54,062 nt of DNA, taken from positions 201,733 through 255,794 of the forward strand of contig NZ_JAAHGO010000007.1 of NCBI RefSeq assembly GCF_010672455.1. Reading direction: 5' to 3'. The stretch's first letter is position 1, and every line of letters starts with the position of its first letter. The position numbers and the translations under genes are program-made. This DNA is from Okeania sp. SIO2C9 (GTDB taxonomy: Bacteria; Cyanobacteriota; Cyanobacteriia; Cyanobacteriales; Microcoleaceae). Of this stretch, positions 6,220 to 39,927 are shown piece after piece. The notes beneath the pieces were generated by a model. The model was given only the letters and a program-made list of their open reading frames with translations. It did not search any database and was not told where the DNA came from.

Positions 6220-7186
6220 ATTAATTTAGCAAAATTTAGACAGATCGAAATAATCTGTACATTCATAGATACCCAAATTAATCTTACTCTCGTTTTTCTA
6301 TCAGATAAAGGGAGACTTCAAAAATGATAACTCTTGGGTTATATTATGTCCAGTCAATGAGCCTTGAAGAAGTAGTCATATCATGTCCGTTTAATTAGTT
6401 ATACCAATTCACTTTAGAGATGTCACAAATAGTTTCACATCTTAGATGTGAAACTATTTCTTGAAATTACTGTAGTGTCAAAGTTTTGAGCCTGTAAAAT
6501 CTTACTTTTAACTTTTAACTTTTGACTTTTGACTTCCGTGAAACGGTATTATAATAAAGTTCTTAGGTGGTAGGTGTAAATTCAATAGGACTTACGCATT
6601 ACAAAGTATTTTCGTCCGAAGCGACCCACAGGAAAGCAATCTCAGGCCCTAGTTTTTCGTACCTCATGCGTAAATCCTGTTCAAGTGAGAACACTGGAAA
6701 TGGAGCACAAATTTGGGATATTCCTTCAACATCGCTTCAATAGAACATTTTTATGATATTTAATCATCCGGACATGGTATCAGTAGAACTGAGAATGGGG
6801 TCGATGGGGATTTAAGCAATCGCATTAAACCTACAACTTTCTTCAATCTGTTTGTATGCCCAACCGTATATATGTTTTTTCAAAGTATTAATATTTAATA
6901 TACAACCATATAATTACTGATAGCTAAAATGGTGTTTAGTGTTTATAGTGTACTAGAGCCAAAATTCTATGCATATTCCATTATTGACTCTTTCCGAATT
7001 TTCTCCACCAGAGTTTTTTTTGACAATTGTTGATATTATAATTGTTTATATTATACGAAGAACAAAAGTGAGGCTATATATCCTATTTATTTATTAGCTG
7101 TAAGACTATTAGGTCTGAGTCACTTTTTTCTTTTTCAAGCTACTTTGAAATACTCCTGCTGGAAAATTCTGAAGAAAATAAAAATT
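6220..7186. repeat. Repeat-rich intergenic region
   Basis: No gene seen. It holds a TATCATGTCCG end at 6379 and a TCCGGACATGGTAT end at 6780, possibly one element 400 nt long enlarged by later insertions: an AGGACTTACGCATT inverted-repeat element (6587-6679), a run of heptamers (TTTTAAC/TTTTGAC, about 6505-6535) and a perfect hairpin at 6427-6459. The last 250 nt before the kinase gene are AT-rich and could hold its promoter. Confidence 0.55.
6427..6459. repeat. Perfect 15-bp hairpin
   Basis: AAATAGTTTCACATC and its exact reverse complement are separated by TTA. The stem is AT-rich with no U-run. It lies upstream of the bestrophin start and far from the kinase start, so it does not look like an intrinsic terminator for either. 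Confidence 0.8.
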
Positions 7187-10100
7187 ATGCTATATCTCCC
7201 TGACTATTCAAATTTACAAACCTTATATCAAGGCAACAACAGTATAATATATAGGGCATTACGGCAGTATGATCGCACCCTAGTTGTCCTCAAAACGCAA
7301 GTTTCTGAATACCCAGCCCCAGAAGAAATTGCGCGCATCAGACATGAATACAACATCCTTAACAACCTCAACTTTGAAGGAATTGTCAAATCTATAGACC
7401 TGATCCACCAGGAATATCGTCTCATCCTCATCCTCGAATACTTCAATCCCCTATCTCTCAAACAACATATAACAGACTCATTGATCGCAATTCCTCAATT
7501 TCTCAACATAGCAATCCAACTTAGTGACACCCTAGATAAAATACACCAACAACAAATAATCCACAAAGATATTAAACCCCACAACATCCTGATCGATCCC
7601 AGCACACAAGAAACAAAAATCATCGACTTCAGCATCGCCACCCGTCTAAAAACAGAAACTCAGACCATCATCAACCCAAATTATATAGAAGGCACTCTAG
7701 CTTATATATCTCCAGAACAAACTGGACGCATGAACCGCTGCATAGACTATCGCAGTGACTTCTACTCCTTGGGTGTCACCTTCTATCAAATCCTCACTAA
7801 ACAGCTTCCCTTCTATAGCAATGACCCAATGGAAGTCATCCACTCCCACATAGCTAAAACCCCTATCCCCCCCAACCAAATCAACTCCAAAATCCCTATT
7901 GCTATATCCTTAATAGTGATGAAACTGCTATCAAAAAATGCCGAAGACCGCTATCAAAGTGCCCTGGGATTAAAAGCAGACCTTGAATATTGCTTGACTA
8001 AACTACAAACCATTAACAGAATTCAAGTCTTTACTCCAGGGAAAAAGGATAAAAAAGGTCAATTTAGTATCCCTCAAAAGCTCTATGGTAGAAAAACAGA
8101 GGTTAGCCTCCTCTTGGAAGCTTTTGGTCGTGTAAGCAATACGGATGACGATAGCATCAGTCAATGCAATAAAGAAATCATTCTAGTTACAGGTTACTCT
8201 GGGATCGGTAAAACCAAAGTAGTTAATGAAGTACATAAACCCATAGTTAAAGCCAGAGGCTATTTCATTGGTGGCAAATTCGATCAATTCAAACGGGACA
8301 TTCCTTATGCTGCTATCAGTCAAGCTTTTCAACAGTTAATCCGCCAGTTACTTACAGAAACTACACTAAAAGTTAGCGAATGGAAGCAGAAACTATTAAC
8401 CGCATTAGGAGAAAATAGTCAAATCATCATTGATGTCATCCCAGAATTAGAATTAATCATCGGTAAACAAGGAAAAGTAGCCCAGTTAGGAGCAACTGAA
8501 TCACAAAACCGTTTCAATCAACTATTTGGAAAATTTGTCCGTGTCTTTGCTCAACTAGAACATCCATTAGTTTTATTTCTCGATGACTTACAGTGGGCAG
8601 ACCTCGCATCATTAAACCTGATCGAACAATTAATGACGGACAGCGAAACCCAACACTTATTATTTATTGGAGCTTATCGAGATAACGAAGTTAACCCAGT
8701 ACATCCGACCATCCAAACCATAGAAAAAATCAAAAAAACCAGCACAACAGTTAATCAAATTATATTAAAACCCCTAAAAATAAATTACATCAGACAATTA
8801 GTAGCAGAAACATTAGCAGAAGAAATTACTACAACTAATGAGCGACTCACTCAATTATCAGATCTACTATACAGTAAAACTCAAGGTAATCCCTTTTTCT
8901 TAACTCAACTACTCAAAACATTGTATACAGACAAATTATTAACATTTGATTTTACAGTGGGATTTTGGATGTGGGATATTGAACAGATTCAAAGTGTAGG
9001 AATAGCAGATTTAGGAGTAGTAGAATTAATTGCTAGGAATATTGAAAAACTATCAACAACTACTCAAAAAGTTTTAAAACTAGCAGCTTGTATTGGCAAT
9101 AAATTTAGTTTAGATGTATTGGCAGTTGTTAACGAAAAATCTTCGACTCAGACAGCAAAAGATTTATGGAGTGCTTTACAAACAGGTTTGATATTACCAC
9201 TCACTCAGGATTATAAAATCCCCTTATTATTTTCTGAAAATGACAATTCCCGAGAATTATTATTTGATGAATCTAGGGTAAGTTATCGTTTTTTACATGA
9301 CAGAGTCCAGCAAGCAGCATATTCAATTATTCCCGAAGAAAATAGAAAAAAAATCCATCTAAAAATTGGTAAGTTGTTGTGGAAAAGTCTGCCCTCTGAG
9401 CAAATAGAAGAGAACATATTTGACCTTGTAAATCAGTTGAATATAGGGCGAGATTTTATCACAGAAACAGAGTTACAAGAAGGGTTACTAAAATTAAATT
9501 TATGGGCAGGGAAAAAAGCCAAAGGAGCTACAGCTTATGAGGCTGCAGGTAGATATTTGAATGTGGGGCTAGAGTTGTTACCCACAAATAGTTGGGAGAG
9601 TAATTATGAATTGACGCGGGATGTTTATTTTGAGATACTAGAAGTTGAATACTTGAATGTGAACTTTGAGTCGGCGCAACAATTGTCGGAACTACTTTTG
9701 TCTAAGATTCAAAGCAATCTCGAACAAGTGAAAGTTTATGAGTTACAAATTCCATATTATTATTCTCAGAATCAATCACAGCCAGCTATAGATATTGCAT
9801 TGTTAGCGTTAAAGTATTTAGGAGCGCACCTACCTGCAAAACCAAATAAGGTCAATATTTTAGTGGAGTTAGCAAAAACTAAATTAGCTCTAAGTCATAA
9901 AAAAATCGAGGATTTAGCAAATATTGCCATTATGAATGATTCTGAACGGATAGCAACTATGCGACTGTTAATGGCAATGATTCCGGCTGCTTTTAATGCT
10001 AATCCGGCTCTGTTTCCTTTAGCTGTATTTAAAATGGTGAGAATCTCTTTGAAATATGGTAAATCTCATCTATCTGCTTTTGGATATGTCAATTATGGTT

Positions 10101-12604
10101 TAATTTTGTGCGGTGTTTTGGGAGACTTTAATTCAGGCTATCAATTTGGTCAATTAGCTTTGGATTTATTAGACCAACTCAATGCCAGAGAAATTAAAGC
10201 GAAAGTATATTTTGCTTTTAATAATTTTATTCGACACTGGAAAGAACATCTTCAGGAAACGATTAACTCATTACTAGAGGGATTTCAAAGTGGTCTATCA
10301 GTGGGAGATTTAGAGTTTGCTTCTTATTGTCTTTGTTTTTATACGAATAATAAATTTTGGGTGGGTGAGCATCTAGATACTGTCGATCAAACCCAAAAAC
10401 AATCTATTGATGTGATATTTAAATATAAACAAAAACTTGTTGGCGATCATTTGACAACTTGGAACCAACTTGTGTCAATGTTGAAAGCTGAAGTGCAGGC
10501 AACAGATGATTTATTGAAGCTAGGAGAAAAATTATCTGTTTTAAAACAGGCAAATGATAGTAGAGGGATAATTAATATTTACCTATCGCAACTAATTTAC
10601 TTTTATTTGTGGAAAAATTATGTGGCAGCTCTAGAAAAGGTGGGAGCAATGGCAGAATATCTAGAAGGAATGAAGGGGTCAATTGAAATTGTGCAATACA
10701 ACTTCTACTACTCTCTTTCTCTGCTAGGCAACTATCCAAGCGTCTCCGCAAAAGAACAAAAACAATACCTCAAGCAAGTCAAATCCAACCAAAAACAAAT
10801 GAAAACTTGGGCACAGCACGCCCCGATGAACTTCCAACACAAATACGACCTGATAGCAGCAGAAATAGCCAGAGTTTTAGGTGAAAATGAAACAGCAGCA
10901 ACCTACTACGAAAAAGCAATTTCAGGAGCTTCAGAAAACAACTACATCCACGAAGAAGCGATCGCCAACGAACGAGCGGCAGAATTTTATCTGTCTATTG
11001 CCAGAGAAAAAGTAGCCAAAACCTACATGACGGAAGCCTATTACTGCTATATTAGTTGGGGTGCTACTGGCAAAATCAAGAACTTAGAAGAACGCCACTC
11101 TAACTTAATTATTCGCACCCAAACACCAGAAATGCCAAAAATTGATGTCACAACAACTATATCCTCAATCACCAACACAACTAGTAAAAATCTCGACTTC
11201 TATACTATTATTAAAGCTTCCCAAACTATCTCAGAGGAAATCGAACTAAATAGCTTGCTTGATAAATTGATGCAAATTCTCATGGAAAACGCTGGAGCAA
11301 ATAAAGGAACTTTAGTTTTGAACAACTCTGGTAATTGGGAAATTCCTATTCAATGCCTGAGCGGCGGCTATGATTCATGCATCACATCTGTGAGTCAGAT
11401 TAATTTACCCCATACTGTGATCAATACCGTCAAACAGACTCAAAAAACTGTACTCATCAATGAGCTTGAAACAGAAACTACCTTCGCTGGAGATCCATAC
11501 CTGATTGAACACCAGCCAAAAAGTCTCTTGTGTACTCCTATCATCAAGCAAGGAAAATTTATTGCTCTCCTCCTCCTAGAAAACAGCCTTGCTACAGGAG
11601 CATTTACTCCCGATCGCATAAAAGTTCTTCATCTACTTATGACTCAAGCTGCAATATCCATCGAAAACGCTAGACTTTATCAGGGTCTAGAAAACCACAG
11701 CTACAATCTCGAAACCCAAGTTAAACAGAGAACTCATGCACTTCAAGAGAAAAACCAAGACTTAGAGCAAACCCTATTTCAATTGCAGCAAACTCAAACT
11801 CAATTGATCCAAACCGAAAAAATGTCTGCTTTAGGAGAAATGGTAGGAGGAATTGCCCACGAAATTAACAACCCCATCACCTTTATATCCAGTAATATCA
11901 TTCATGCTCGCAAATATTTCCAGGACTTACTAGAGTTGCTTGAGCTGTACCAACAAAACTCTCCTGAACCCAGTCCAGCTATCACAGAAAAATTAGAAGA
12001 GCTTGAACTAGAATTTTTGTCTGAGGATGTAGAAAAACTGTTCAATTCTATGGAAAAAGGGAGCGGTCGCATTAGTCAAATTATTCTCGGTTTGCGTAAT
12101 TTCTCCCGCCTCGACGAATCAGACATGAAGGAGGTAGATATCCACGAAGGATTAGAGAATACCTTAATGATTCTGCAACATCGCCTTAAAGCAGAGCGCT
12201 CCCGCCGAGAAATTGCTATAATTAAAAAATACGGAAAACTCCCCCCAGTCTACTGCTGGGCAAGTCAACTCAATCAAGTATTTATGCACATTCTTAGTAA
12301 TGCGATCGACGCTCTAACAACTTCGAGGATTGAGAGTTGCCCCGAAATTACGATCACCACTGAGGTGCGAGACGCAAAAACTGTCATAATTCGTATTGCC
12401 GACAACGGGGTAGGAATGAGCGACAGAGTTTGCCAACGAGTATTTGAACCCTTCTTCAGCACCAAGCAGATCGGTCTAGGAACAGGATTGGGATTATTTG
12501 TTAGTTACCAAATCGTGACTCAGCAACATGGAGGAAAGTTGAAGTGTATTTCTCAACTGGGACAAGGGACAGAATTTATTATAGAAATTCCTATTGAAGG
12601 GTAA
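7187..12604 (+). CDS. Ser/Thr kinase - AAA ATPase - GAF - histidine kinase fusion (HstK type)
   Basis: 1805 residues from the ATG at 7187; a TTG at 7145 is in frame but family members start just before the LPxY segment. Domains: Hanks-type kinase (1-270) with VVLKTQ lysine, IHKDIKPHNILI catalytic loop, DFS in place of DFG, and SPEQTGRMNR activation segment typical of this family; AAA_16 ATPase with Walker A GYSGIGKT near residue 338 and Walker B LVLFLDDLQWAD near 463; a long helical repeat region (about 640-1300); GAF domain (about 1350-1500); HisKA H-box AHEINNPI with phospho-His near 1558; and HATPase_c with the IADNGVGM and GTGLGLF boxes. Such proteins combine Ser/Thr and His phosphorylation and are abundant in filamentous cyanobacteria. 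No receiver partner lies nearby, so the signal and target are unknown. Confidence 0.92.
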   Translation: MLYLPDYSNLQTLYQGNNSIIYRALRQYDRTLVVLKTQVSEYPAPEEIARIRHEYNILNNLNFEGIVKSIDLIHQEYRLILILEYFNPLSLKQHITDSLIAIPQFLNIAIQLSDTLDKIHQQQIIHKDIKPHNILIDPSTQETKIIDFSIATRLKTETQTIINPNYIEGTLAYISPEQTGRMNRCIDYRSDFYSLGVTFYQILTKQLPFYSNDPMEVIHSHIAKTPIPPNQINSKIPIAISLIVMKLLSKNAEDRYQSALGLKADLEYCLTKLQTINRIQVFTPGKKDKKGQFSIPQKLYGRKTEVSLLLEAFGRVSNTDDDSISQCNKEIILVTGYSGIGKTKVVNEVHKPIVKARGYFIGGKFDQFKRDIPYAAISQAFQQLIRQLLTETTLKVSEWKQKLLTALGENSQIIIDVIPELELIIGKQGKVAQLGATESQNRFNQLFGKFVRVFAQLEHPLVLFLDDLQWADLASLNLIEQLMTDSETQHLLFIGAYRDNEVNPVHPTIQTIEKIKKTSTTVNQIILKPLKINYIRQLVAETLAEEITTTNERLTQLSDLLYSKTQGNPFFLTQLLKTLYTDKLLTFDFTVGFWMWDIEQIQSVGIADLGVVELIARNIEKLSTTTQKVLKLAACIGNKFSLDVLAVVNEKSSTQTAKDLWSALQTGLILPLTQDYKIPLLFSENDNSRELLFDESRVSYRFLHDRVQQAAYSIIPEENRKKIHLKIGKLLWKSLPSEQIEENIFDLVNQLNIGRDFITETELQEGLLKLNLWAGKKAKGATAYEAAGRYLNVGLELLPTNSWESNYELTRDVYFEILEVEYLNVNFESAQQLSELLLSKIQSNLEQVKVYELQIPYYYSQNQSQPAIDIALLALKYLGAHLPAKPNKVNILVELAKTKLALSHKKIEDLANIAIMNDSERIATMRLLMAMIPAAFNANPALFPLAVFKMVRISLKYGKSHLSAFGYVNYGLILCGVLGDFNSGYQFGQLALDLLDQLNAREIKAKVYFAFNNFIRHWKEHLQETINSLLEGFQSGLSVGDLEFASYCLCFYTNNKFWVGEHLDTVDQTQKQSIDVIFKYKQKLVGDHLTTWNQLVSMLKAEVQATDDLLKLGEKLSVLKQANDSRGIINIYLSQLIYFYLWKNYVAALEKVGAMAEYLEGMKGSIEIVQYNFYYSLSLLGNYPSVSAKEQKQYLKQVKSNQKQMKTWAQHAPMNFQHKYDLIAAEIARVLGENETAATYYEKAISGASENNYIHEEAIANERAAEFYLSIAREKVAKTYMTEAYYCYISWGATGKIKNLEERHSNLIIRTQTPEMPKIDVTTTISSITNTTSKNLDFYTIIKASQTISEEIELNSLLDKLMQILMENAGANKGTLVLNNSGNWEIPIQCLSGGYDSCITSVSQINLPHTVINTVKQTQKTVLINELETETTFAGDPYLIEHQPKSLLCTPIIKQGKFIALLLLENSLATGAFTPDRIKVLHLLMTQAAISIENARLYQGLENHSYNLETQVKQRTHALQEKNQDLEQTLFQLQQTQTQLIQTEKMSALGEMVGGIAHEINNPITFISSNIIHARKYFQDLLELLELYQQNSPEPSPAITEKLEELELEFLSEDVEKLFNSMEKGSGRISQIILGLRNFSRLDESDMKEVDIHEGLENTLMILQHRLKAERSRREIAIIKKYGKLPPVYCWASQLNQVFMHILSNAIDALTTSRIESCPEITITTEVRDAKTVIIRIADNGVGMSDRVCQRVFEPFFSTKQIGLGTGLGLFVSYQIVTQQHGGKLKCISQLGQGTEFIIEIPIEG

Positions 12605-12674: not shown

Positions 12675-13439
12675 TTATTGGGCAGTATATCCTCCATCAA
12701 TCATCATATTCTGTCCTGTAATGAAGGAAGTCTTATCAGAACATAGCCATTTTACTGCTTCACCTACTTCATCAGGAGTACCTAAACGCTCTATAGGATA
12801 AGGATGGTCTGCCATGAACCGATCGAGTTGACTACCAGGTAATATTTTTTCTAGAATTGGAGTTTTAATAACAGCAGGACTCACAACATTAATGCGGATG
12901 CCTGATTTTGCATACTCAATAGCTGTTGCTTTAGTCAAGGCTATAATTCCGCCTTTGCTAGCTGAATAAATAGACAGTTCTGCTGTACCAGCTACACCAG
13001 CAACAGAAGCCATATTTACAATTGTACCACTACCCTGTTTCAACATTTGTGGAATCTCATACTTCAGAGAAAGCCATGTTCCCTTGAGATTAGTGTTAAT
13101 AATATAGTCCCAATCTTCTTCTGAAGAATCGATTAATGAACAGATTTTGCTAACACCAGCATTATTGAATGCACAGTCTAAACGACCATAAATATCTACG
13201 GTCTTGTTAACCAATGCTTCTATTTCACTAGCCTGAGACAGATCAGTCTTCACAAAAATAGCATCACCACCTATTTCACAAATTTCATGTACTGTTTGTT
13301 CTCCTTCAGCAACTCGTCTACCTGCGATGACTACCTTGGCTCCTTCCTGGGCAAACATCAGAGCTGTTGCTTTACCTATGCCTGATGAGCCACCTGTAAC
13401 TAACACAACTTTTCCGTTAAATTCTTTTGAGAATAACAT
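12675..13439 (-). CDS. Short-chain dehydrogenase/reductase
   Basis: 254 residues, the usual SDR length. TGGSSGIG nucleotide-binding motif at 16-23, NNAG at 92-95, and the Ser145/Tyr158/Lys162 triad (YSASK). An Arg-rich IAGRR after beta-2 favours NADP(H), but this is a weak indication. The C-terminus MMIDGGYT is typical of FabG-like and glucose-dehydrogenase-like classical SDRs. The start has a good ribosome site (AAAGGAGTG, 5 nt before ATG). It is the most downstream of five minus-strand genes with the KAS III-like enzyme, CoA ligase and ammonia-lyase, so a keto or alcohol reduction in that pathway is plausible but inferred. Confidence 0.9.
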   Translation of the reverse strand: MLFSKEFNGKVVLVTGGSSGIGKATALMFAQEGAKVVIAGRRVAEGEQTVHEICEIGGDAIFVKTDLSQASEIEALVNKTVDIYGRLDCAFNNAGVSKICSLIDSSEEDWDYIINTNLKGTWLSLKYEIPQMLKQGSGTIVNMASVAGVAGTAELSIYSASKGGIIALTKATAIEYAKSGIRINVVSPAVIKTPILEKILPGSQLDRFMADHPYPIERLGTPDEVGEAVKWLCSDKTSFITGQNMMIDGGYTAQ

Positions 13440-14598
13440 CTTTACACTCCTTTGATTTCAATAAATATAGCGCTACGCGCAAGGCAACAGGCAACAGGCA
13501 ACAGGCAACAGGCAGCAGGCGAATACAAAAGGGTTTGCTGCTTCTATTTATGTCAAACACCTTAATGCGTAGCGCTATATAATCTGGAAATGTGGAAAAT
13601 ATAGCAGTTGCCATTACTGTATTTGATATCAAATCCACTATTGTTCGGTATCAATGAGTTATATCAAATCCGGTAGCATCGGTGTTATTCAGTATTTTAA
13701 AGATAAGAGTCCATATTGTAGGGGCGAATGGCATTCGCCCCTAACCATTGTATGACGACGACAGAATTATATTGCTCCGAAGCCAACGGATTTGATATTA
13801 GGTAATAGGAAGACTTCCTTAGGTAGAGTCCCCGTCGGATTGGCGACGTACAGAAGTCAGCATGGAAAAGATAAAACAAGATTTGGTAATAGTGAATATC
13901 GAGATTTTTTTATACCTAAATTAAAAGGATTTGATATGACATATCAAAAGCTTAAAAATCAGACAACGCAAGATTTTTCCTTTTTGCTTGTTGCTTGTTG
14001 CTATCAATAATAAATTTTGTTGAGAAGGTGAAGTCTTTATACAAAATAATAAGTTTGTCTTGACTAACAAATACTTCACTCTCAAATGGAAATGATACTA
14101 ATATCATGTTCGGATGATCACTTATAATAAAGCCAGAATCATTACAGTAGAAGTCTTCAAATTTTATGGCCCAAAAGATGGCGTTCGCCAACTACCTCTA
14201 TGTTCTGACGATCGCTTATAACTGAACAGCCCTAGTTTGAGGCCACCAATGGAAACAAGTTATATCATGTCCGGATCAGAGCGCTTCGCAAAAAACTTTC
14301 TCTTCATTTATAGCTTAAAATTCCCTCCTCATAACTCATAACTCATTACTCATTACTCATAACTCATTACTCCTCCATTTTTATTTATAACTATTCAACC
14401 GAACATGATATAAATCCGCTGATGAAAAGGTACTTTTTTCAAATTATCTCTAATATCATGTTCGGATAATTAGTAAAGATACTATTTACAACCGGATTTG
14501 ATATGACTTCCACAGTAACTCTATTTGTAGGGCACGTCGCAACGTACCCTAAATCACAGTTAGAGTATAATAAAAAATTTGCGTAAGCTCTGATGAAC
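13440..14598. repeat. Repeat-filled gap between SDR and KAS III-like genes
   Basis: No gene seen in 1.16 kb. Contents: TATAGCGCTACGC inverted ends at about 13466 and 13581 around a GGCAACA heptamer array; ATCAAATCCGGTAGC and GGATTTGATAT motifs at 13624-13680 and 13785-13940; a GGGCGAATGGCATTCGCCC palindrome (about 13722-13740); an ACTCAGACAACGC-family repeat (13940-13985); one TATCATGTTCGG end (14102); a complete TATCATGTCCGG element at 14263-14412 carrying ACTCATT heptamers; and a 52-nt minimal version at 14454-14505. Confidence 0.6.
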
Positions 14599-15708
14599 TT
14601 AAACTCCTACTTTCATCAGGCTTTCTGATGGTGTAGGAGCAACTCCTAAAGCTACATCACCCCAACGCATCACCATTGCACCAACATTTGATGAAGTACC
14701 TAAGGTGTAGATGAGAACTAGGTCATTTTCTCGAAGTTTACCAGAATGAGTTGCATGATAGAGATTAGCAAGAGGTAAAACAGCGCCAATATTAGCGTAC
14801 TGAGAATGTAGATTAATAGTGCGTTTTGGATCTATATTTAATTTTCGCGCACAGACATCTACATACCAAGCAGTAGGACTATTGAAAGCAAAAAAATCAA
14901 TTTGATCTAGTGTCAAACCAGCTTCAGCAACAGCACCTTCGCAGCAAGTACGAATCACATTTGAACTCTCACTTAATACTTTACCTGCATTATTGCCAGC
15001 GCGGATCAACATTTTCACCTTGTTTTGCTCTTCTATAATGAATTCGTTAAAGAAAGCACCACAGGTATTACCTGTATTTAAAATTTTCGTGCCCAGGACA
15101 CCTTGATTTGCTTCTAGTTTACTAACCAACACAGCACCTCCAGCGTCACCGAGGAACCACGAGAAACTATCTCGCTCATCAGCAAAACGAGTATAAGTGT
15201 TTGAAACAACAACCAATACATTGTGATACAGTCCAGCTTTCACCATGGCGTTGGCAGTTTGGAGCGCTACCATAGCACTAGAGCAAGTTGCTTCAACGTT
15301 CCAAGCAGCTCCAGTATATCCTAATTTTTGGGAAAGATAGGCAGCGTTACCAGGGGCAATTTCTTCAGGAAAAATTGAAGCGACAAGCATTAAATCTACT
15401 TGGTCAATAGACATATTTGCTGCTTTGAGAGCATCGGTGGCAGCACGATATTCTAAGCTTAGTGAGGAGTCACCAGGGCCTAATACCCTACGTTCTACGG
15501 TACCACGAAAAGGGTCTTGAAGATATGGCTTCATCGCTTGACTGAATTCATTGCTGCTGGTTGAATTACTAGCTGAAAAAAGCTTTGCTAAGTTGTTTTG
15601 CTCTGCTTGAGCAACTAACTCAGGATACTTTTTTCGCCAATAATCATTAGTACGCACAACACTAGGAAAACTAACGGCAAGAGAACGAATACCTACAGGT
15701 TGATACAT
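14599..15708 (-). CDS. KAS III-like thiolase-fold enzyme with altered active site
   Basis: 369 residues, near the 320-350 of FabH-type ketosynthases plus an N-terminal loop insertion (about 30-70). Cys142 in VEATCSSAMVAL is the nucleophile, GDAGGAVLV is the usual core strand, and Asn306 in YANIGA matches the Asn of YGNTSA. The FabH PHQAN box is replaced by FNSPTAW, putting Asn276 where the catalytic His should be. The family includes acyl-CoA:ACP ketosynthases and non-decarboxylating acyltransferases. Loss of His favours acyl transfer or an unusual condensation over FabH housekeeping; this is inference. It has an AAGGA ribosome site 12 nt before ATG and sits between the SDR and CoA ligase genes on the same strand. 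Confidence 0.85.
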   Translation of the reverse strand: MYQPVGIRSLAVSFPSVVRTNDYWRKKYPELVAQAEQNNLAKLFSASNSTSSNEFSQAMKPYLQDPFRGTVERRVLGPGDSSLSLEYRAATDALKAANMSIDQVDLMLVASIFPEEIAPGNAAYLSQKLGYTGAAWNVEATCSSAMVALQTANAMVKAGLYHNVLVVVSNTYTRFADERDSFSWFLGDAGGAVLVSKLEANQGVLGTKILNTGNTCGAFFNEFIIEEQNKVKMLIRAGNNAGKVLSESSNVIRTCCEGAVAEAGLTLDQIDFFAFNSPTAWYVDVCARKLNIDPKRTINLHSQYANIGAVLPLANLYHATHSGKLRENDLVLIYTLGTSSNVGAMVMRWGDVALGVAPTPSESLMKVGV

Positions 15709-16144
15709 GATAGATTTATTCCTTAATTATGTACTTGTGAAAAACTTGATTTGTCAGTTCGACGATCGTCAAACTCTCAATTGATGCCTTTTGATTCTGA
15801 TCTAGATATGGTAATGTTCCATCTGAGCGCCATTGCCAAATCTTTCTTGATCTCCCCATCTCCCCACCCTCCCCACCCTCCCCACACTCTTTATCTAATT
15901 ACCGAAAAATTCAGGTATAAAGCCTCTCCATTCATGGAGAAAAAAGCGGTCGAGGGATGGCGAGGTCTCCTCGCCATATCCATGAGACCAAGAGAAGAAA
16001 AAAAATCCTTTGATCCAATCCTCTTAATTTATAAGAAGAGGTAATTCTAAATTCGCGCATTCTAAATTCGCGCATTCTTGAAACCAATGCTACCGGATTT
16101 GATATGAAACACTATTACTAACGTGCGGTGCTATATTTAGTCAA
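15709..16144. repeat. Gap with an ACCGAAAAATT...AGAGG repeat
   Basis: No gene seen. Positions about 15900-16045 hold a dispersed repeat starting ACCGAAAAATT and including AAAAAGCGGTCGAGGGATGG and a 3' AAGAGGTAATTCTAAATT segment; another copy is at 50530-50690. It is preceded by a run of CTCCCCACC units and followed by a doubled ATTCTAAATTCGCGC. The end of the region has the GGATTTGATATGA motif. Confidence 0.55.
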
Positions 16145-17635
16145 TTATTGTTGGCACAAAACACGCTTGAGAACTTTCCCCGTAGCATTTTTGGGAATAG
16201 AATCAACAAAGCGAAATGTATGAGGCACTTTATAATTTGCTATTCTCTGAGCACAGAAACTTTTCAGATCCTCAGCAGAAGCAAATTTACTAGGTTTGAG
16301 AACGATATTAGCATTAACCACCTCTCCTTTCAGGCGATCGCTCATACCATAAACCGCTGCCTCAACTACAGATGGATGTTCCAGAATCACTTTTTCCACT
16401 TCAGAAGGATACACTTTGAACCCAGAAACATTAATCATATCCTTCAAACGATCGACAATATAGAAATAGTTATCTTCATCCATCTTGCCTAGATCGCCTG
16501 TACGAAACCAGCCATTATCCAAGACTTTCTGTGTTTCTGTTGTACGATTCCAATATCCTAGCATTACATTCGGACCGCGTATTAACAGCTCTCCAACTTC
16601 CCCACATTCAAGCTCGTTGCCAGCTTCATTCACAACCTTCATTTCTACGTTTTCAATTGGCATTCCAATGGAACCCAATTTATATCTCAAATCGTGGTTG
16701 TAACAAGCAAAAGGTGAAGTTTCTGTTAATCCATAACCCTCATATATCAGTTTACCACAAAATTCTTGCCACTGACACACAAGGTCTACAGATATTTTAG
16801 CAGCAGCACTAAAATAATAGCGCACCGAGTTAAAATCTGACTGCGAGACACCCATCTCCAGCAAGCGTAAAAACACAGTCGGAACTCCAAACAACATGGT
16901 CACGCCATGATTTTGAACAGCTCTCAATACATCTTCTGGTTTAAACCGTCGCTGCAAAATAATTGTTGCGCCAGCATTTAACCCACCATTGAGAATAAAA
17001 TTCTGACCGAAACAGTGGAAAAGGGGTAAAAAAAGCAACAATTTATCATCAGAGTGGATCTTACAAGAATGCTTAACTGAGTGCATATTAGAACACACAT
17101 TCCCGTGAGATAGGGTTGCTCCTTTAGGAAAACCAGTGGTGCCAGAAGTGTAAACAATAGCAGCAGGAGCTTTCGGTTCCATGGAAACTGCCTTGAAATC
17201 AGCACTCCCTTTTTCGAGCAGAGTAGATAAGCTGATATCTGTATATGTTTCACCCTCAGCAATTAAAACATTTTTGAGAAAAGCTAAATCCCGATGGGGT
17301 ATTTGCTCCCTCAAAGATTCTGTTGTCACAACTGCTACTGCCTCACTATCATTTAGGATGAAGCGAACTTCATCACTTTTCAGCATTGAATTAACAGAAA
17401 CAACCACGGCACCACGTTTGAGAATTGCCAAATAAGTAATGACAAATTCAGGAATATTTGGCAAAAACAAAGCTATGCGATCGCCACATTTTATTCCCAA
17501 ATACCGCAAACCATTAGTTACACGATTTGCTAACTCATTTAGTTCCCCATAAGTAAAAGCTTTTTCTTCAAAAATTAAAGCTGTTTTGTGAGGAAAAAAT
17601 TGAGCGCCTCTTTCAATATGTTGTGTAATATTCAT
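16145..17635 (-). CDS. Acyl-CoA ligase (ANL superfamily, 4CL/long-chain type)
   Basis: 496 residues. Adenylate-forming motifs in order: P-loop YTSGTTGFPKG near 166, YEGYGLTE (A5), GWFRTGDLG (A7), RLKDMINVSG (A8 hinge) and PKNATGKVLKR with the catalytic lysine near the C-terminus. No carrier-protein domain, no N-terminal extension, and no FAAL-type insertion is obvious, so CoA thioester formation is the natural reading: acid + ATP + CoA to acyl-CoA. The acid is not deducible, but the ammonia-lyase gene upstream suggests a cinnamate-like aryl acid. The 79-residue gene starts 240 nt further upstream and ends 116 nt before this start. Confidence 0.88.
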   Translation of the reverse strand: MNITQHIERGAQFFPHKTALIFEEKAFTYGELNELANRVTNGLRYLGIKCGDRIALFLPNIPEFVITYLAILKRGAVVVSVNSMLKSDEVRFILNDSEAVAVVTTESLREQIPHRDLAFLKNVLIAEGETYTDISLSTLLEKGSADFKAVSMEPKAPAAIVYTSGTTGFPKGATLSHGNVCSNMHSVKHSCKIHSDDKLLLFLPLFHCFGQNFILNGGLNAGATIILQRRFKPEDVLRAVQNHGVTMLFGVPTVFLRLLEMGVSQSDFNSVRYYFSAAAKISVDLVCQWQEFCGKLIYEGYGLTETSPFACYNHDLRYKLGSIGMPIENVEMKVVNEAGNELECGEVGELLIRGPNVMLGYWNRTTETQKVLDNGWFRTGDLGKMDEDNYFYIVDRLKDMINVSGFKVYPSEVEKVILEHPSVVEAAVYGMSDRLKGEVVNANIVLKPSKFASAEDLKSFCAQRIANYKVPHTFRFVDSIPKNATGKVLKRVLCQQ

Positions 17636-17751
17636 TGTAATTTTTTACCCCAAATATTTGTTTTTCCATGGTGTATAAAGTAGTTTTATAGTAAGCATTT
17701 TCTACAAGGAATACTTACGTTTTATACATTGGAGTAATGTATCAAAGAAAA

Positions 17752-17991
17752 TCAAATTATTTGACAAAAACCGTAAGTTTTAACTGCCAAATTAGTAGTG
17801 TATTCAGCAATATAATCAGCCGGAGCTATGATTTGACAAATTTGTTGCCAATCACTAGCATCTAGTTGAAAAATTTTTCGGCAATGCTCGATTGTTTCTA
17901 CCCAAAATTGTAGTTTTTTGGAGAATTTAGTTTTCTGAAAAAAACACAACCATCTACAACAAACTTCTGGGAAAAAAGTTTGAATCTTCAT
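17752..17991 (-). CDS. Small Cys/Trp-rich protein of unknown function
   Basis: 79 residues, not recognised. It contains five Cys and four Trp, a basic-hydrophobic N-terminal third, then a segment that could form helices (HCRKIFQLDASDWQQIC). An AAGGATATTTCG ribosome site 7-11 nt before the ATG supports translation. It lies between the ammonia-lyase and CoA ligase genes on their strand and ends 116 nt before the ligase start, so co-transcription is plausible. No transmembrane helix or signal peptide is clear. Confidence 0.55.
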   Translation of the reverse strand: MKIQTFFPEVCCRWLCFFQKTKFSKKLQFWVETIEHCRKIFQLDASDWQQICQIIAPADYIAEYTTNLAVKTYGFCQII

Positions 17992-18843
17992 CGAAATATC
18001 CTTGTTTTTCTGGCTTAACTAATCAAAACAAGAACAAACTAATTATTGTTGATTAGTTACTATTAATTTTTAACGATTAGGCACAGACAAATGTTTGAAG
18101 AAGTGGGAGAGTGAGGGAGTGGGGGAGTAGGAAAGAAACCGATACAGTTGCAGGAGTGCCAAAATAATTAGTAGCTTACGTTGCAAAGCACTTTAAACTA
18201 CGGTACGGGTAGCATATAAATCAGATATTTCCTTAATTCCCGATTAATGAAAGTAGTTTTAAGGGTAACTGTATAATCGGTATTTCATATCAATCTGAGT
18301 AACGATTATTTCGCTTTACCTTGCAACTTTACCTATTTTTTTCTCTGTGTTTTTTACCGAAAAATTGTGGTTTAAAGCCTCCCCTTTTAAGGGGATAATA
18401 ATATCATGTCCGGATAATTAGTGATAAAAAACTTTCTCCTTCTTCTCCTGTTCTTCTTCTTCCTTCCCTCTTTCCTCCTGACTCCTGAGGACTGACTCCT
18501 GACTCCTCCGTCGTTATTTATTTATCACTGTTCAACCGGACATGATATAAGCGGTCGTTTGCGCAGCATGACCTAGGATGGGATGGCGAGGTCTCGGAGC
18601 CATATCCAATCGACTCCTGTGAAGAAAAATTTTCATGAATTTGTCAATCCTCTTCTTTCAAGGAGAGGTAATTATTCATTATTCATTATTCATTATTCAT
18701 TATTCATTATTCATTGTTGAAAGGTAATCCTAAATACTCAAAGTAACCTTCTTATAAGTAAAGATATAGGAGATAATCTAGTATTGTACACCCTAAACTT
18801 TACTCATAATTTTTTGAAAAGATAAAAACGAAGAGTTTTCTAA
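17992..18843. repeat. Nested dispersed repeats between small gene and ammonia-lyase
   Basis: No gene seen. An ACCGAAAAATT element begins at 18357 and continues after 18550 with AGCGGTCG, GATGGCGAGGTCTCGG and AAGGAGAGGTAATTATTC. It is split by a TATCATGTCCGG inverted-repeat element at 18402-18549 (left end TATCATGTCCGGATAATTAG, right end CCGGACATGATATA). The inner element carries ACTCCTG heptamers. An ATTCATT heptamer array lies at about 18670-18715. Confidence 0.7.
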
Positions 18844-20673
18844 TTATTTTTCATTCAGTAATTCAGAAAAAATATCAGAAACAGCTTGACTAATCTGACC
18901 AGGGTCACTCAAATCATCTACAATTCGTGAAATATAAATGTCTAAACTTTGTTCATCATCATCCCAGATCAAAGACTGTTCTTTTGACACAGGTTTTCCT
19001 AACAGTTCTCTGACTTTATTATACAACATTTTAGTTGCAGGTGACAAGTTTTTTTCAACATCATAATTACCAAAAACCAGATAATTTTTTTGCTCCACTG
19101 CCTGGACAGCAAAAATCAAAGCGATCGCTAAATATTGTCGGAATAAATCAATCGAAGTCCGTGCCAAATTAGCAGAACCAAATCCTTGACTATTAATATT
19201 CTGATTAAACTGTTCGGCATGAGTAGGAAAACGGTCAGCTAGAGAATTCCCATAAAAAGTCAACAACGGCATAATTGAATTGCCAGCAATTTGCAAACCC
19301 TTCAATCCCATATTCACTTTTCGTTGAGCATTCCCCACCAAAGAAGCAGGTAATCCACCATTAAATTCAGGAGTAACTAACAGAGCAATTTGAACATCTA
19401 AATGTTTAGCAATTAACCCCATAAAATAGCGCAGTCGGTCCATTGCGACTCCCACATATTGACCCAGAAAATTACCGCCGTGATAGCTACTTTGACGTTT
19501 TACATCAATTAAGGGATTATCAGTCACAGAATTAATTTCTGTCTCTATCTGACTAGCAATATCCGACAAACCATCCAGCACCGGACCCAAATACTGCGGT
19601 AAACAGCGCATAGAATAACGGTCTTGAATCAAATCGCCACCATCAAAGTGATTATCACCATTCAATTCATCGTAACTCAAACGGGAGTCACACAGCAAAT
19701 TTACCATTTGTTCTGCGACCCAGACTTGACCGGGGTGAGGTTTCAAACCATGGATAAATGGATGAAATGACTGATTTGTACCGCCCAGTGCTTGTATCAT
19801 TAATGCGTGAGTTGCAATAGCTACAGCAAATAATGAATGAGCATCATTTACACAATTGGCAGCTATTCCAGTCATCACAGAAGTACCATTAACCATTGCC
19901 AACCCTTCCTTAGCACGCAAAGACAAGGTTGGTAATTCAAGTCGCTTAAGAGCTTCAACGGCTGACATTTCTTTGCCTTTGAAATCTACAGTAAACGCTG
20001 GATCTAAACCTAGTAATGCTCCAGTAATATGTGTCAGAGGGACTAGATCCCCACTAGCACCAATGGAACCTAAATCATAAACATGAGGGGTAACTCCTTC
20101 GTTGAGGAATATCGCCATACGTTCGATTAATTCATAGCGAATACCAGAGGCACCTTTGGTATGAGAGTTCATCCGCAACAGCATAGCAGCACGAACATCA
20201 GCAATAGGGAGTCGATTTCCTGTTCCTACTTTGTGATACCAAATTAGGTTTTCTTGCAAGGCAGCAGCATCTTCACAGGAAATAGCTGTGTTAGCCATAC
20301 CACCAAATCCTGTAGTGACTCCGTAAATTGATTTTCCAGTTTCTACAGCATTGGCAATATAGTTGCAAGAGTCTTGGATACCTTGGCAGACATCTTGACG
20401 TTTTGTTAGTGTAACTGGCGCTCCTAATTTTGCTACCTTCGCTACCTGTCTGAGAGTGAGATTGTCTTCGCCAACAACTATTGGGTTTGATATTTGATCA
20501 GATTCAGATTTTCTGATGGATAAATGGTTCTCAATACTAGATGAAGTTTTAAGTTTGAGACTCTGATTATGGAGAGATGAAGAACTTTTATCCCCTACCG
20601 ATTCTTGAAGGGGTTGATTGTTCAGTAATTTATTTCTCAATTGTATTTTCTCCTCTTGAGCGATCGAAATCAC
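18844..20673 (-). CDS. Aromatic amino acid ammonia-lyase/aminomutase (PAL/HAL family, MIO enzyme)
   Basis: 609 residues from GTG. The Ala206-Ser207-Gly208 triad in GSIGASGDLVPL cyclises to the MIO cofactor, Tyr118 of YGVTTGFGG is the catalytic base, and NSVTDNPL and HAEQFNQNINSQG are further family boxes. It closely resembles the bacterial PALs described from Nostoc/Anabaena (about 567 residues), with a 45-residue longer N-terminus. The selectivity pair is Tyr146-His147 (IWYHK) instead of the Phe-Leu of strict PAL (VWFLK). A hydroxylated substrate such as tyrosine, or aminomutase chemistry, is possible. A GAGGAG site sits 9 nt before an in-frame TTG at 20640, which may be the true start. It is the first gene of the minus-strand set with the CoA ligase, KAS III-like enzyme and SDR. 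Confidence 0.9.
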   Translation of the reverse strand: MISIAQEEKIQLRNKLLNNQPLQESVGDKSSSSLHNQSLKLKTSSSIENHLSIRKSESDQISNPIVVGEDNLTLRQVAKVAKLGAPVTLTKRQDVCQGIQDSCNYIANAVETGKSIYGVTTGFGGMANTAISCEDAAALQENLIWYHKVGTGNRLPIADVRAAMLLRMNSHTKGASGIRYELIERMAIFLNEGVTPHVYDLGSIGASGDLVPLTHITGALLGLDPAFTVDFKGKEMSAVEALKRLELPTLSLRAKEGLAMVNGTSVMTGIAANCVNDAHSLFAVAIATHALMIQALGGTNQSFHPFIHGLKPHPGQVWVAEQMVNLLCDSRLSYDELNGDNHFDGGDLIQDRYSMRCLPQYLGPVLDGLSDIASQIETEINSVTDNPLIDVKRQSSYHGGNFLGQYVGVAMDRLRYFMGLIAKHLDVQIALLVTPEFNGGLPASLVGNAQRKVNMGLKGLQIAGNSIMPLLTFYGNSLADRFPTHAEQFNQNINSQGFGSANLARTSIDLFRQYLAIALIFAVQAVEQKNYLVFGNYDVEKNLSPATKMLYNKVRELLGKPVSKEQSLIWDDDEQSLDIYISRIVDDLSDPGQISQAVSDIFSELLNEK

Positions 20674-22065: not shown

Positions 22066-23574
22066 TTACTGAATATCATATCCAAATAAATTCGGGTCAA
22101 CTTCTGCCAAATTCAAATCATCCAACCCATACTCAGTCCAACGTCTATCCACCATTGCAGCAACATCGGCATCGGACTCCAAAGCTGCACCCCACTCATG
22201 GTCAGTTTCAGGAGGAATTTTTGTAGTCGCATCTATTCCCATACGACCACCCAAACCAATTTTTTCGCTAGCAAAATCTAAACTATCAAAAGGTGTATTC
22301 GGCAAAATAAACACATCTCTAGAAGGATCGACTTTAGAGCTAATTGCCCATACTACCTGACGAGGGTCGCGAATATTAATCTTATCGTCCACCACAATTA
22401 CAAATTTTGTATAAGTAAACTGTGGTAAAGCACTCCAAAAAGCTAACGCTGCTCGTCGCGCTTGACCTGGATATGCTTTCTTAATAGAAATTACCGCAGC
22501 TTTGTAACTCAGAGCTTCCATGGGGAGGAAAAAATCAACAATTTCTGAAACTTGCTGTCGGAGAATAGGAGTATATATCCGGTTCAGAGCGATCGCCATC
22601 ATTGCTTCTTCTTTGGGCGGTCTCCCACTAAAAGTGGTCAAATAAATTGGGTCTTTGCGGTGAGTCATACAGTGAAATCTAACCACCGGAGAATCTTCCA
22701 ACCCACCATAATAACCCATGTGGTCGCCAAATGGGCCGTCAGGCAACATTTCCCCAGGAGTAATAGTACCTTCAAGGACAAATTCTGAATCTGCGGGTAT
22801 TTCCAAATCTAAGGTTTTGCACTTATTTAACTTGACACCTGAACCACCATAAAGTCCTGCGAATAGCCATTCTGACAAGTCTACAGGAATTGGAGTAGCA
22901 GCAGCCATAATAATTAATGGGTCTACACCAAGAGCAATTGCAATTTCCAACTTTTTCCCATTTTCTGCTGCTTTTCGCAAATGTCGCGCTCCACCACGGA
23001 CGGATAACCAATGTACAGTCATAGTGTTACGCGACTGTAACTGTAACCGATAAACCCCTACATTTGGTGTACCTGTTTCACAATCTTTTGTAATAACCAA
23101 ACCGAGAGTAATAATTTTACCCGCATCTCCAGGATAGGGACGAATCATCGGAATTTTGTTTAAGTCGAGAGCGTCTCCCTCAACAACGACTTGTTGACAA
23201 GGAGGGAAAAAGTCACGCCCTGGTTTTGCTTTGACAACATCAAACAAAACTTTGCCAAATTCTACTGCTTGGGAAATCTTTTTTGGTGGTTTTGGTTGTT
23301 GGAGCATCCCCAGTTTTTTGCCCAAGGTTTCCAATTCTTGGGGTTTTTCCATATTCATTGCCCAGCATACTCGTTGTTCTGTACCCAACAAGTTTATTGC
23401 TATGGGGTAGTCAGACCCTTTGACATTTTCAAACAGGAGACCAGGGCCACCCTTTTGCAGCATCCGATTACAAATTTCTGCTATTTCTAGGTCAGGGTCA
23501 ACTAAAGCTTTGATTCGGCATAGTTGTCCTCGGTCTTCTAAAATTTTCAGGAATCCTCTTAAGTCGCGGGCCAT
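22066..23574 (-). CDS. ubiD: UbiD-family 4-hydroxybenzoate decarboxylase
   Basis: 502 residues, the usual length. Start chosen at the ATG giving MARDLRGFLKILEDRGQL, the conserved UbiD N-terminus; 16 upstream in-frame codons lack conservation. Family segments: MLQKGGPGLLFENVKGS, VGVYRLQLQSRNTMTVHW, PDGPFGDHMGYYG (the acidic/His metal and prenyl-FMN region) and GRPPKEEA. UbiD enzymes use prenylated FMN made by UbiX to decarboxylate aryl acids; in cyanobacteria the conserved member acts in plastoquinone synthesis. The gene is 1.4 kb from the ammonia-lyase. A role in decarboxylating its product is conceivable, but the housekeeping role is more likely. Confidence 0.9.
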   Translation of the reverse strand: MARDLRGFLKILEDRGQLCRIKALVDPDLEIAEICNRMLQKGGPGLLFENVKGSDYPIAINLLGTEQRVCWAMNMEKPQELETLGKKLGMLQQPKPPKKISQAVEFGKVLFDVVKAKPGRDFFPPCQQVVVEGDALDLNKIPMIRPYPGDAGKIITLGLVITKDCETGTPNVGVYRLQLQSRNTMTVHWLSVRGGARHLRKAAENGKKLEIAIALGVDPLIIMAAATPIPVDLSEWLFAGLYGGSGVKLNKCKTLDLEIPADSEFVLEGTITPGEMLPDGPFGDHMGYYGGLEDSPVVRFHCMTHRKDPIYLTTFSGRPPKEEAMMAIALNRIYTPILRQQVSEIVDFFLPMEALSYKAAVISIKKAYPGQARRAALAFWSALPQFTYTKFVIVVDDKINIRDPRQVVWAISSKVDPSRDVFILPNTPFDSLDFASEKIGLGGRMGIDATTKIPPETDHEWGAALESDADVAAMVDRRWTEYGLDDLNLAEVDPNLFGYDIQ

Positions 23575-23786
23575 AATTTTATTAACTTTTGTTAAACAAC
23601 GGTATGATATCACAGGAGTCATATCAGTTATTAGTTGTCAGTAGCTAGAAAGGAGTTTTTTTATAGCAGAAGGAAGAATATTGCGTTGTATGAGTTTTAA
23701 GATTTTGGGCGTTGGTGAATCAACATAAGAATTATGAATACCCCTTTCATTACTTGCTTCCGAACAACCCGTAAACGAAATAATCT

Positions 23787-23814: not shown

Positions 23815-24058
23815 CTGTTCCCTATTCCCTGTTCCCCATTCCCTGTTCCAGATTTTGATATGTCCGCACCCTTTCCTTCTACTGGTATATATCATGTATT
23901 TATAAATAGAAAGGTAGTTATGCATAGTTAGGAGTTATGCACTGACAATAGATATAGAGTTTCGCTCAGTTATGCTACCGCTAACACACCCTACTAATAG
24001 CGTTCATGCGTAAGTCCTGATAGTAATGGTAGATGAGAATTAACAACGGCGCTTCATG

Positions 24059-24333
24059 GGAGTAAGATACGAGCAAGGGAGCAAGATACGAGCAAGGGAG
24101 CAAGATACGAGCAAGGGAGTAAGATACGAGCAAGGGAGCAAGATACGAGCAAGGGAGCAAGATACGAGCAAGGGAGCAAGATACGAGCAAGGGAGCAAGA
24201 TACGAGCAAGGGAGCAAGATACGAGCAAGGGAGCAAGATACGAGCAAGGGAGCAAGATACGAGCAAGGGAGCAAGATACGAGCAAGGGAGCAAGATACGA
24301 GCAAGGGAGCAAGATACGAGCAAGGGAGCAAGA
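24059..24333. repeat. 19-nt minisatellite, about 14 copies
   Basis: Unit GAGCAAGATACGAGCAAGG, nearly perfect, with GAGTAAGATAC variants in the first copies. The unit length is not a multiple of three and the array is open in several frames, which reflects its composition, not coding. Confidence 0.95.
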
Positions 24334-24425
24334 TGCTCCCACTGCTAATTAAATACTTTTGACTTTTGACTTTTGATTTAATGGGTAATTCACCATAAGA
24401 TTATTGAAGATGAAATCAAATACTT

Positions 24426-38139: not shown

Positions 38140-38145
38140 AAGCTA

Positions 38146-38335
38146 TCTAAGCCTGGGGATAGAGAAATCTATCTAACTCTTATATCGATGTAGGTGAAAG
38201 TCCTACCCTTTAGGGATGAAGTGACTCCTTACTTGGCCACGATGAGTAAGCTCGGAATCTTACAGGTCGAAGCTGGCAACAGGGCGCAATCATAACGAAA
38301 GCAGATAGTTACACTGGCGCTCATAGGGGGATAAT
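38146..38335 (+). mobile_element. 5' fragment of a group II intron (domain I)
   Basis: GATAGAGAAATCTATC, TAGGTGAAAGTCCTACC and the AAGCTCGGAATCTTACAGG-TCGAAGCTGGCAACAGGGCG series are typical of domain I of cyanobacterial group II introns, as recalled from the family. No reverse transcriptase frame, domain V or 3' end follows; after 38340 the sequence turns into other repeats. It begins directly after the lpxC stop. Confidence 0.5.
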
Positions 38336-39924: not shown

Positions 39925-39927
39925 GAT

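What the first reader, a model, noticed from the sequence alone, without database searches (positions are those of the whole stretch)
12675..20673. Possible arylacrylate pathway: ammonia-lyase, CoA ligase, KAS III-like enzyme, SDR
Five same-strand genes in succession encode a PAL/HAL-family MIO enzyme, a small protein, an ANL acyl-CoA ligase, a KAS III-like enzyme with an altered active site and an SDR. The first two known activities would give a cinnamate-type acid and its CoA ester; the KAS III-like protein could transfer or extend it and the SDR reduce it. The combination resembles plant phenylpropanoid logic without a chalcone synthase. The wide, repeat-filled gaps leave co-regulation unproven.
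Basis: partly seen in the sequence, partly recalled or inferred. Interest (0 to 1): 0.7.

Follow-up and report, generated by a model that had tools for sequence, protein, structure and literature searches.

The report
Furanolide-type cluster missing its acyloin synthase
A filamentous cyanobacterium carries three of the four enzyme types known to build furanolide natural products, plus a reductase, but no gene for the fourth was found in its genome, so it probably joins a cinnamate-type building block to some other, still unknown, partner.

Summary
They are not a plant-like or chalcone-type pathway. Lyase, ligase and KAS III-like protein belong to the families of CybB/MacB, CybC/MacC and CybF/MacF, enzymes of cyanobacterin and maculalactone (furanolide) biosynthesis; CybF is itself described as a 3-oxoacyl-ACP synthase. 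The fourth signature enzyme, the thiamine-dependent acyloin synthase CybE/MacE, was not found in the window or the 10.9-Mb genome. It is also missing from nine of the ten other genomes found in this family with lyase-ligase-KAS together; the tenth (G430) has it. Trees need at least two changes, most simply losses. The order lyase-small ORF-ligase-KAS-SDR recurs in four relatives (small ORF broken in one). A congener has lost the block but for a ligase fragment. At the same locus three congeners carry a KAS only about 40% identical to the window's, whose nearest kin is an E-linked furanolide synthase; the lyase's selectivity pair differs too. Best reading: an aryl-acrylate pathway derived from furanolide clusters, whose CybF-type enzyme uses a partner not made by CybE. 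Partner and SDR step are unknown. New variant of a known kind.

The parts
18844..20673 (-). aromatic amino acid ammonia-lyase (CybB/MacB family), GTG start, 609 aa; MIO motif Ala-Ser-Gly kept; selectivity pair Tyr146-His147
17752..17991 (-). small ORF (79 aa), shortened and probably decaying relative of a 110-aa two-repeat protein found between lyase and ligase in other genera of the family
16145..17635 (-). acyl-CoA ligase (CybC/MacC family), 496 aa
14599..15708 (-). KAS III-like protein of the furanolide synthase (CybF/MacF) family, 369 aa; Cys142, Asn276 in place of the FabH His, Asn306
14612..14670 (-). 3' end of the KAS gene, 90% identical in DNA to congener L183 although the rest of the gene gave no DNA match there: likely recombination breakpoint (inference)
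12675..13439 (-). SDR-family oxidoreductase, 254 aa; in 37 genomes searched the copies beside a KAS are 66-71% identical, one on a short separate contig 63%, all others 58% or less
7145..12604 (+). neighbour, not counted as pathway gene: 1819-aa Ser/Thr kinase-AAA-GAF-histidine kinase, beside 8 of the 10 E-less clusters
22066..23622 (-). neighbour, not part: UbiD-family decarboxylase, the only one found in the genome, so probably the plastoquinone housekeeping enzyme (inference)

Best explanation
The locus is an aryl-acrylate pathway derived from a furanolide (cyb/mac-type) gene cluster that has lost the acyloin synthase CybE. Proposed steps: (1) the ammonia-lyase deaminates an aromatic amino acid, more likely tyrosine than phenylalanine because of its Tyr-His pair, to coumarate or cinnamate; (2) the CybC-type ligase makes the CoA ester; (3) the CybF-type KAS III-like enzyme takes the acyl group on Cys142 and transfers it to, and probably forms a C-C bond with, a partner that is not a CybE product; (4) the SDR reduces a carbonyl of a partner or product. 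Shown by sequence: family membership of each enzyme, conserved order, no CybE found in the genome, different KAS at the same locus in congeners. Inferred: every reaction, the preference for tyrosine, the identity of the partner and the step of the SDR.
For: Window identities to these two: PAL 63-65%, ligase 58-63%, KAS 60-61%. KAS is also 60% to Nostoc sp. 210A (L106), whose nostoclide-like cluster is in print (PMC5987646, passages). CybF is described as 3-oxoacyl-ACP synthase (PMC8777810, section 7). CybE profile: 945 bits in G430, at most 195 bits (generic ThDP enzymes) in the other 12 of 13 genomes, G000 included. No CybE remnant in the window (best E 0.12). KAS tree of 27 rows: window with E-linked L103, support 97/95. 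KAS position 276 is Asn in the window and in 23 of 26 E-linked lyase-ligase rows, Tyr in 8 of 9 E-less ones. PAL and ligase dN/dS 0.25-0.29 against three congeners. Same-genus G418 lacks PAL, KAS and SDR at this locus and keeps only ligase residues 21-230 between UbiD and the kinase.
Against: No gene product or activity has been observed. The SDR is beside the KAS in 5 of 10 E-less clusters only. Active-site letters do not mark the presence of CybE cleanly: the E-linked rows L165, L180 and L123_2 have Tyr, Phe and His at position 276. The window KAS departs from the E-linked consensus at 19 of 143 well conserved positions, against 12 for L103 and 17 each for L034 and L120. dN/dS of PAL and ligase is well above that of UbiD (0.03-0.04), so constraint is moderate. 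An E-linked type of KAS in a genome without CybE is odd if the enzyme's partner really has changed. The genome is in 317 contigs, though rated 99.98% complete; one of the other nine E-less genomes (G413) is only 87% complete.
Confidence: 0.6

Rival explanations
1. Decaying furanolide cluster: CybE was lost and the rest is a relic, kept for a time by chance.
For: No CybE found; small ORF shortened, frame broken in L183; congener G418 shows loss of the block.
Against: Four full-length open genes; PAL and ligase dN/dS 0.25-0.29; at least two changes of the E state in the PAL and ligase trees, with PAL-ligase-KAS retained across several genera; a KAS of another lineage sits at the locus and is open.
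Confidence: 0.2
2. The furanolide reaction still runs, on acetolactate or 2-aceto-2-hydroxybutyrate made by the housekeeping acetohydroxyacid synthase, which like CybE products are alpha-hydroxy-beta-keto acids; product: a small methyl-substituted furanolide.
For: CybE joins two alpha-keto acids to such an acid (PMC12395478, passages; PMC13288894, parts 1-3); the genome's two ThDP matches are distant CybE relatives, 26-27% (which of them is acetohydroxyacid synthase was not checked); the CybE/CybF assay accepted a methyl group at the beta position (PMC12395478, passage). The chemistry of acetolactate is recalled.
Against: No direct evidence. PMC13288894 describes furanolides as having a conserved aromatic gamma substituent; acetolactate would give none. 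Acetolactate should be available in most relatives, so this does not explain why they keep CybE.
Confidence: 0.15
3. The KAS III-like enzyme is only an O- or N-acyltransferase that makes a coumaroyl/cinnamoyl ester or amide of an unknown acceptor; no C-C bond is formed.
For: FabH His replaced, Cys kept; O-acylation is the first published step of CybF.
Against: The window enzyme has the E-linked state at 9 of 13 columns that separate 23 E-linked from 9 E-less rows, but three E-linked rows that blur the contrast had been left out of that set.
Confidence: 0.2
4. Chain extension with malonyl units, as in plant chalcone synthase or Photorhabdus StlD/DarB stilbene and dialkylresorcinol pathways.
For: PAL plus ligase plus condensing enzyme is also the logic there (recalled); StlD/DarB model matches weakly (E 6e-6).
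Against: 25.5 bits against a cut-off of 450 for the StlD/DarB model; FabH His absent; the nearest relatives with lyase and ligase sit in furanolide-type clusters.
Confidence: 0.05

Closest known systems
maculalactone cluster mac (Nodularia sp. NIES-3585; PMC13288894)
   Same: ammonia-lyase, CoA ligase and KAS III-like furanolide synthase of the same families, same order, 58-65% identity to L026/L027, which have the gene content of mac
   Different: mac has MacE, DAHP synthase, chorismate mutase and tyrosinase; the window cluster has none of these, no MacE was found in the genome, and it has an SDR
cyanobacterin cluster cyb (Tolypothrix sp. PCC 9009; described in PMC12395478, PMC8777810)
   Same: lyase CybB, ligase CybC, 3-oxoacyl-ACP synthase-like CybF
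   Different: CybE and halogenase/tailoring genes present there; the sequence of cyb itself was not available here
nostoclide-like cluster of Nostoc sp. 210A (L106; PMC5987646)
   Same: lyase (Tyr-His pair), ligase, KAS 60%
   Different: has the CybE-type enzyme, DAHP synthase and chorismate mutase nearby
Oscillatoria princeps RMCB-10 cluster (L103)
   Same: nearest KAS (64%), lyase-ligase-KAS-SDR in the same order
   Different: CybE-type gene directly before the KAS
PqsBC / FabH (solved structures)
   Same: fold of the KAS model (Foldseek E from 6e-28)
   Different: 18-24% identity in the listed matches; not tested for the same substrates

Membership tests
furanolide BGC (cyb/mac/ncl type) | ammonia-lyase CybB | tested here: met
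   63-65% to the mac-like clusters
furanolide BGC (cyb/mac/ncl type) | acyl-CoA ligase CybC | tested here: met
furanolide BGC (cyb/mac/ncl type) | ThDP acyloin synthase CybE | tested here: not met
   not found in window or genome; found with the same profile in G430
furanolide BGC (cyb/mac/ncl type) | furanolide synthase CybF | tested here: met
   by family, motif and tree; activity not tested
furanolide BGC (cyb/mac/ncl type) | gamma-butyrolactone product with aromatic gamma substituent | not testable with these tools
   needs expression or metabolite analysis
KAS III (FabH) beta-ketoacyl-ACP synthase | Cys-His-Asn triad | tested here: not met
   Cys142 and Asn306 present, His position is Asn276 (the triad itself is recalled)
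KAS III (FabH) beta-ketoacyl-ACP synthase | FabH-type fold | tested here: met
StlD/DarB family ketosynthase | score above NCBIfam cut-off | tested here: not met
   25.5 bits, cut-off 450
tyrosine- versus phenylalanine-specific ammonia-lyase | selectivity pair next to the aromatic ring | tested here: inconclusive
   Tyr-His in the window, Phe-Leu in congeners and in mac-like L027; meaning of Tyr-His in this group not shown by any search

The most novel reading that the evidence does not exclude
Furanolide-type clusters have repeatedly thrown away their acyloin synthase and turned into three-enzyme pathways whose CybF-type enzyme couples a coumaroyl or cinnamoyl unit to a partner taken from primary metabolism (for instance acetolactate), with the SDR finishing the product. 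In the window species the pathway was then retooled by exchanging the KAS, together with the lyase's selectivity residues, giving an undescribed scaffold.
Probability: 0.3. Interest if true: 0.7.

Novelty: new variant of a known kind. Interest (0 to 1): 0.5.

Why it matters
CybF is described as the first enzyme found to catalyse a Morita-Baylis-Hillman reaction (PMC8777810), and furanolides are reported to have algicidal, cytotoxic and antibiotic activities (PMC12395478, abstract listing and passages). A natural group of relatives that work without CybE would show what else this fold can join, and ten such loci, one with an exchanged KAS, form a ready experiment in how a condensing enzyme changes its partner. 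It also gives relatives of the Anabaena and Nostoc phenylalanine ammonia-lyases a pathway context in another family of cyanobacteria.

Tried and rejected
UbiD (22066-23622) as a cinnamate decarboxylase of the cluster: rejected as unlikely; it is the only UbiD match in the genome, is present once in all four congeners including G418, which has lost the pathway, and no UbiD match lies in the E-less loci of other genera.

Chain extension by malonyl units: disfavoured.

A CybE pseudogene in the gaps: none found (76 CybE-type queries against the window, best E 0.12).

A CybE gene elsewhere in the genome: none found (single query; profile).

Position of the window KAS: the quick 106-row tree warned that long branches meet. 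I rebuilt with 27 rows only: the 36 rows with lyase and ligase nearby, less eight long-branched E-less rows and L123_2; the 70 rows without a lyase-ligase pair were also left out. The pairing with L103 rose from 80 (SH-aLRT) to 97/95 (bootstrap/SH-aLRT). Weakly supported deeper forks are not used.

The acetolactate idea has no direct support and is kept as a rival.

Literature: library searches for cyanobacterin/furanolide (10 of 19 listed), phenylalanine ammonia-lyase with cyanobacteria and cinnamoyl-CoA, 'furanolide synthase', CybE/acyloin/thiamine/cyanobacterin, CsmA/BpmA and Morita-Baylis-Hillman (10 of 261 listed) listed no paper whose title or abstract start is about CybE-less clusters. 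Of PMC13288894 I read parts 1-3 of 6, of PMC8777810 passages and section 7, of PMC12395478, PMC5987646 and PMC9002059 passages only. Subscription papers, including the original cyanobacterin paper, were not readable, so I do not claim that none exists. Two searches on lyase selectivity (2 papers, 10 of 12 listed) gave nothing on the Tyr-His pair.
Full report
Observation. The five minus-strand ORFs are at the stated places. Four are clear enzymes: aromatic ammonia-lyase, AMP-forming acyl-CoA ligase, KAS III-like protein and SDR. The lyase is closest to solved Anabaena and Nostoc phenylalanine ammonia-lyases (790-794 bits). The KAS keeps the FabH Cys and Asn but has Asn276 where FabH has His. 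Its model (AlphaFold2 with 28 sequences, pLDDT 85.9, pTM 0.89) has the FabH/PqsBC fold. The 79-aa ORF has no family.

Distribution. In one sample of 386 cyanobacterial genomes the KAS (E to 1e-40) is in 19 and a close lyase (62% identity or more) in 9 (at E to 1e-60, 20 further genomes hold only a distant lyase, 33-38%). Seven hold both (P = 7e-9), and in all seven the two genes are within 5 kb. Reading 112 neighbourhoods (window, 31 fetched stretches, 80 loci) gives 106 distinct KAS rows: 26 with lyase, ligase and CybE-type enzyme, 47 with the CybE-type enzyme but no lyase-ligase pair, 10 with lyase and ligase but no CybE-type enzyme, 23 with neither. Some neighbourhoods are cut by contig ends, so absences there are not firm. 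The named loci are the best 80 of 129 confirmed candidates.

What the family is. This is the gene content printed for the maculalactone cluster (PMC13288894, parts 1-3 of 6 read), where B is the lyase, C the ligase, E the thiamine enzyme and F the furanolide synthase. CybF is described as a 3-oxoacyl-ACP synthase (PMC8777810, section 7). L106 is from Nostoc sp. 210A, for which a nostoclide-like cluster is in print (PMC5987646, passages). That L027 is the NIES-3585 cluster is inferred from gene content. The KAS of the window is 58-61% identical to those of L026, L027 and L028.

The missing enzyme. With one MacE query over 21 genomes and a profile of eight CybE-type proteins over 13 genomes of the window's family, the window genome shows only two generic thiamine enzymes (26-27% to MacE; at most 191 bits against the profile). 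In that family the KAS was found in 12 of 61 genomes; 11 of them have lyase, ligase and KAS together, the twelfth (G415) has the KAS at a contig edge. Ten of the eleven (G000, G129, G203, G336, G391, G392, G413, G419, G420, G421) show no CybE-type gene genome-wide. The eleventh, G430, scores 945 bits, and there the gene lies inside the cluster (L180). G413 is only 87% complete, so its absence is weaker. No remnant lies in the window. In the PAL and ligase trees G430 is sister to the window's genus (support 100), and the E-less state needs at least two changes. CybE was therefore probably lost more than once; a gain in G430 is possible but less likely given how widespread CybE is.

Order and losses. 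Lyase-small ORF-ligase-KAS-SDR is found in the window, L045, L046, L181 and L183 (there the small ORF is broken and the SDR doubled). The other five of the ten E-less loci show no SDR beside the KAS; in L186 the contig ends there, and that genome has a 63% SDR on another short contig. In 37 genomes the SDRs beside a KAS are 66-71% identical to the window's, the G421 copy 63%, and all other matches 58% or less (matches to E 1e-60). SDRs of 60-65% also sit in clusters of the E-linked kind outside those genomes, for example L103, L122 and L155, so the SDR is a recurrent member of the wider family. In same-genus G418 the place between UbiD and the kinase holds only a ligase fragment (residues 21-230) and no lyase, KAS or SDR: the block is dispensable and was lost by deletion, which also removed the kinase's 3' end.

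Different KAS at the same locus. Congeners L183, L184 and L186 have UbiD 98-99%, lyase 90-91% and ligase 92-93% identical, but KAS only 39-41%. The window KAS groups with L103 (Oscillatoria princeps, CybE present; 97/95 in a 27-row tree; 80 in the 106-row tree), whereas lyase and ligase group within the genus. In DNA the KAS gene gave no match to the congeners except 59 bases at its 3' end (90% to L183), as expected if the gene was replaced by recombination; that is inference. Of 13 columns that separate 23 E-linked from 9 E-less KAS, the window has the E-linked residue at 9, the E-less at 1 and neither at 3. L123_2, L165 and L180, E-linked but long-branched or E-less-like, were left out of that set beforehand; at position 276 they have His, Tyr and Phe, so these letters do not mark the presence of CybE cleanly. 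The window thus has a furanolide-synthase-like enzyme in a genome without CybE, which counts against a simple story in which E-less clusters all use the divergent KAS.

Lyase selectivity. The position known to govern Phe/Tyr choice (His89 in R. sphaeroides TAL; PMC9002059, passages) lies in a pair that is Tyr-His in the window, Phe-Leu in the three congeners and His-Leu in L180. Over 38 rows (three of them repeats of others) 22 are Tyr-His, 15 Phe-Leu and 1 His-Leu. L027, which matches the maculalactone cluster whose preferred acyl unit is cinnamoyl, is Phe-Leu. That Tyr-His means tyrosine is inference; the placing of His89 on this pair, and its correspondence with Phe107-Leu108 of the Anabaena enzyme, are recalled.

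Selection. dN/dS of the window against the three congeners is 0.25-0.29 for lyase and ligase, 0.45-0.92 for the small ORF, 0.03-0.04 for UbiD. The lyase and ligase are constrained, less than a housekeeping gene; the small ORF hardly is. The KAS has no close orthologue for such a test.

Mechanism. Published steps for CybB, CybC, CybE and CybF (deamination, CoA ester, acyloin condensation, O-acylation with Morita-Baylis-Hillman closure and hydride shift) give a clear expectation for three of the window's enzymes. Without CybE the nucleophile must come from elsewhere. The CybE/CybF assay accepted small alkyl groups at the beta position, so a primary metabolite such as acetolactate is conceivable, but nothing here shows it. 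The SDR could act on the partner or the product.

Verdict. The better frame is a CybE-less derivative of furanolide clusters. By the published description (all four signature enzymes) it is not a furanolide cluster; in three of four enzymes it works like one. The corrections made on checking did not require a change of the odds.

Noticed in passing
window 7145-12604; L034, L045, L046, L181, L183, L184, L185: A 1819-aa Ser/Thr kinase-AAA-GAF-histidine kinase (or relative) lies beside 8 of the 10 E-less clusters, in 5 of the 8 on the same strand downstream; the window genome has about 15 such genes (16 matches at E to 1e-80, two of them halves of one), so chance proximity would be a few per cent. 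Possible regulator.
   Followed up: partly
L127-L178 (many), e.g. L138, L149, L155: 47 of 106 KAS rows have a CybE-type gene but no lyase-ligase pair nearby, some with the SDR: an E-F(-SDR) module whose acyl donor is unknown; some of these loci are cut by contig ends.
   Followed up: no
L032, L033, L038, L040-L044, L047, L048, L150, L159, L160, L167, L171-L173, L177: A supported clade of 18 KAS rows, most with a C-terminal extension (about 500 aa in all), without CybE or lyase; several lie beside an AMP-ligase and an NRPS-like protein of about 1158 aa.
   Followed up: no
L123:10001-12367: Two KAS genes in tandem after a CybE-type gene, the second strongly diverged: a possible route by which a cluster comes to hold the other KAS kind.
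   Followed up: no
L180:4897-6393 and L122:4942-6324: Likely tailoring genes inside relatives' clusters: a Rieske ring-hydroxylating oxygenase and a cytochrome P450.
   Followed up: partly
L187:5880-10957: In G418 the deletion that removed the pathway also removed the 3' end of the neighbouring kinase gene.
   Followed up: partly
window 24058-24334 and 21192-21423: Tandem arrays: 19-base unit, 14.6 copies, 98% matches; 104-base unit, 2.2 copies, upstream of the lyase.
   Followed up: no
window 24572-26035: NYN-domain protein with an N-terminal zinc ribbon of the IS1/IS1595 transposase type.
   Followed up: no
window 37150-44606 and 45620-46108: Lipid A genes lpxC, a FabA-like dehydratase, an lpxA-like acyltransferase and lpxB in order, then an IS605 OrfB-type transposase fragment.
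   Followed up: no
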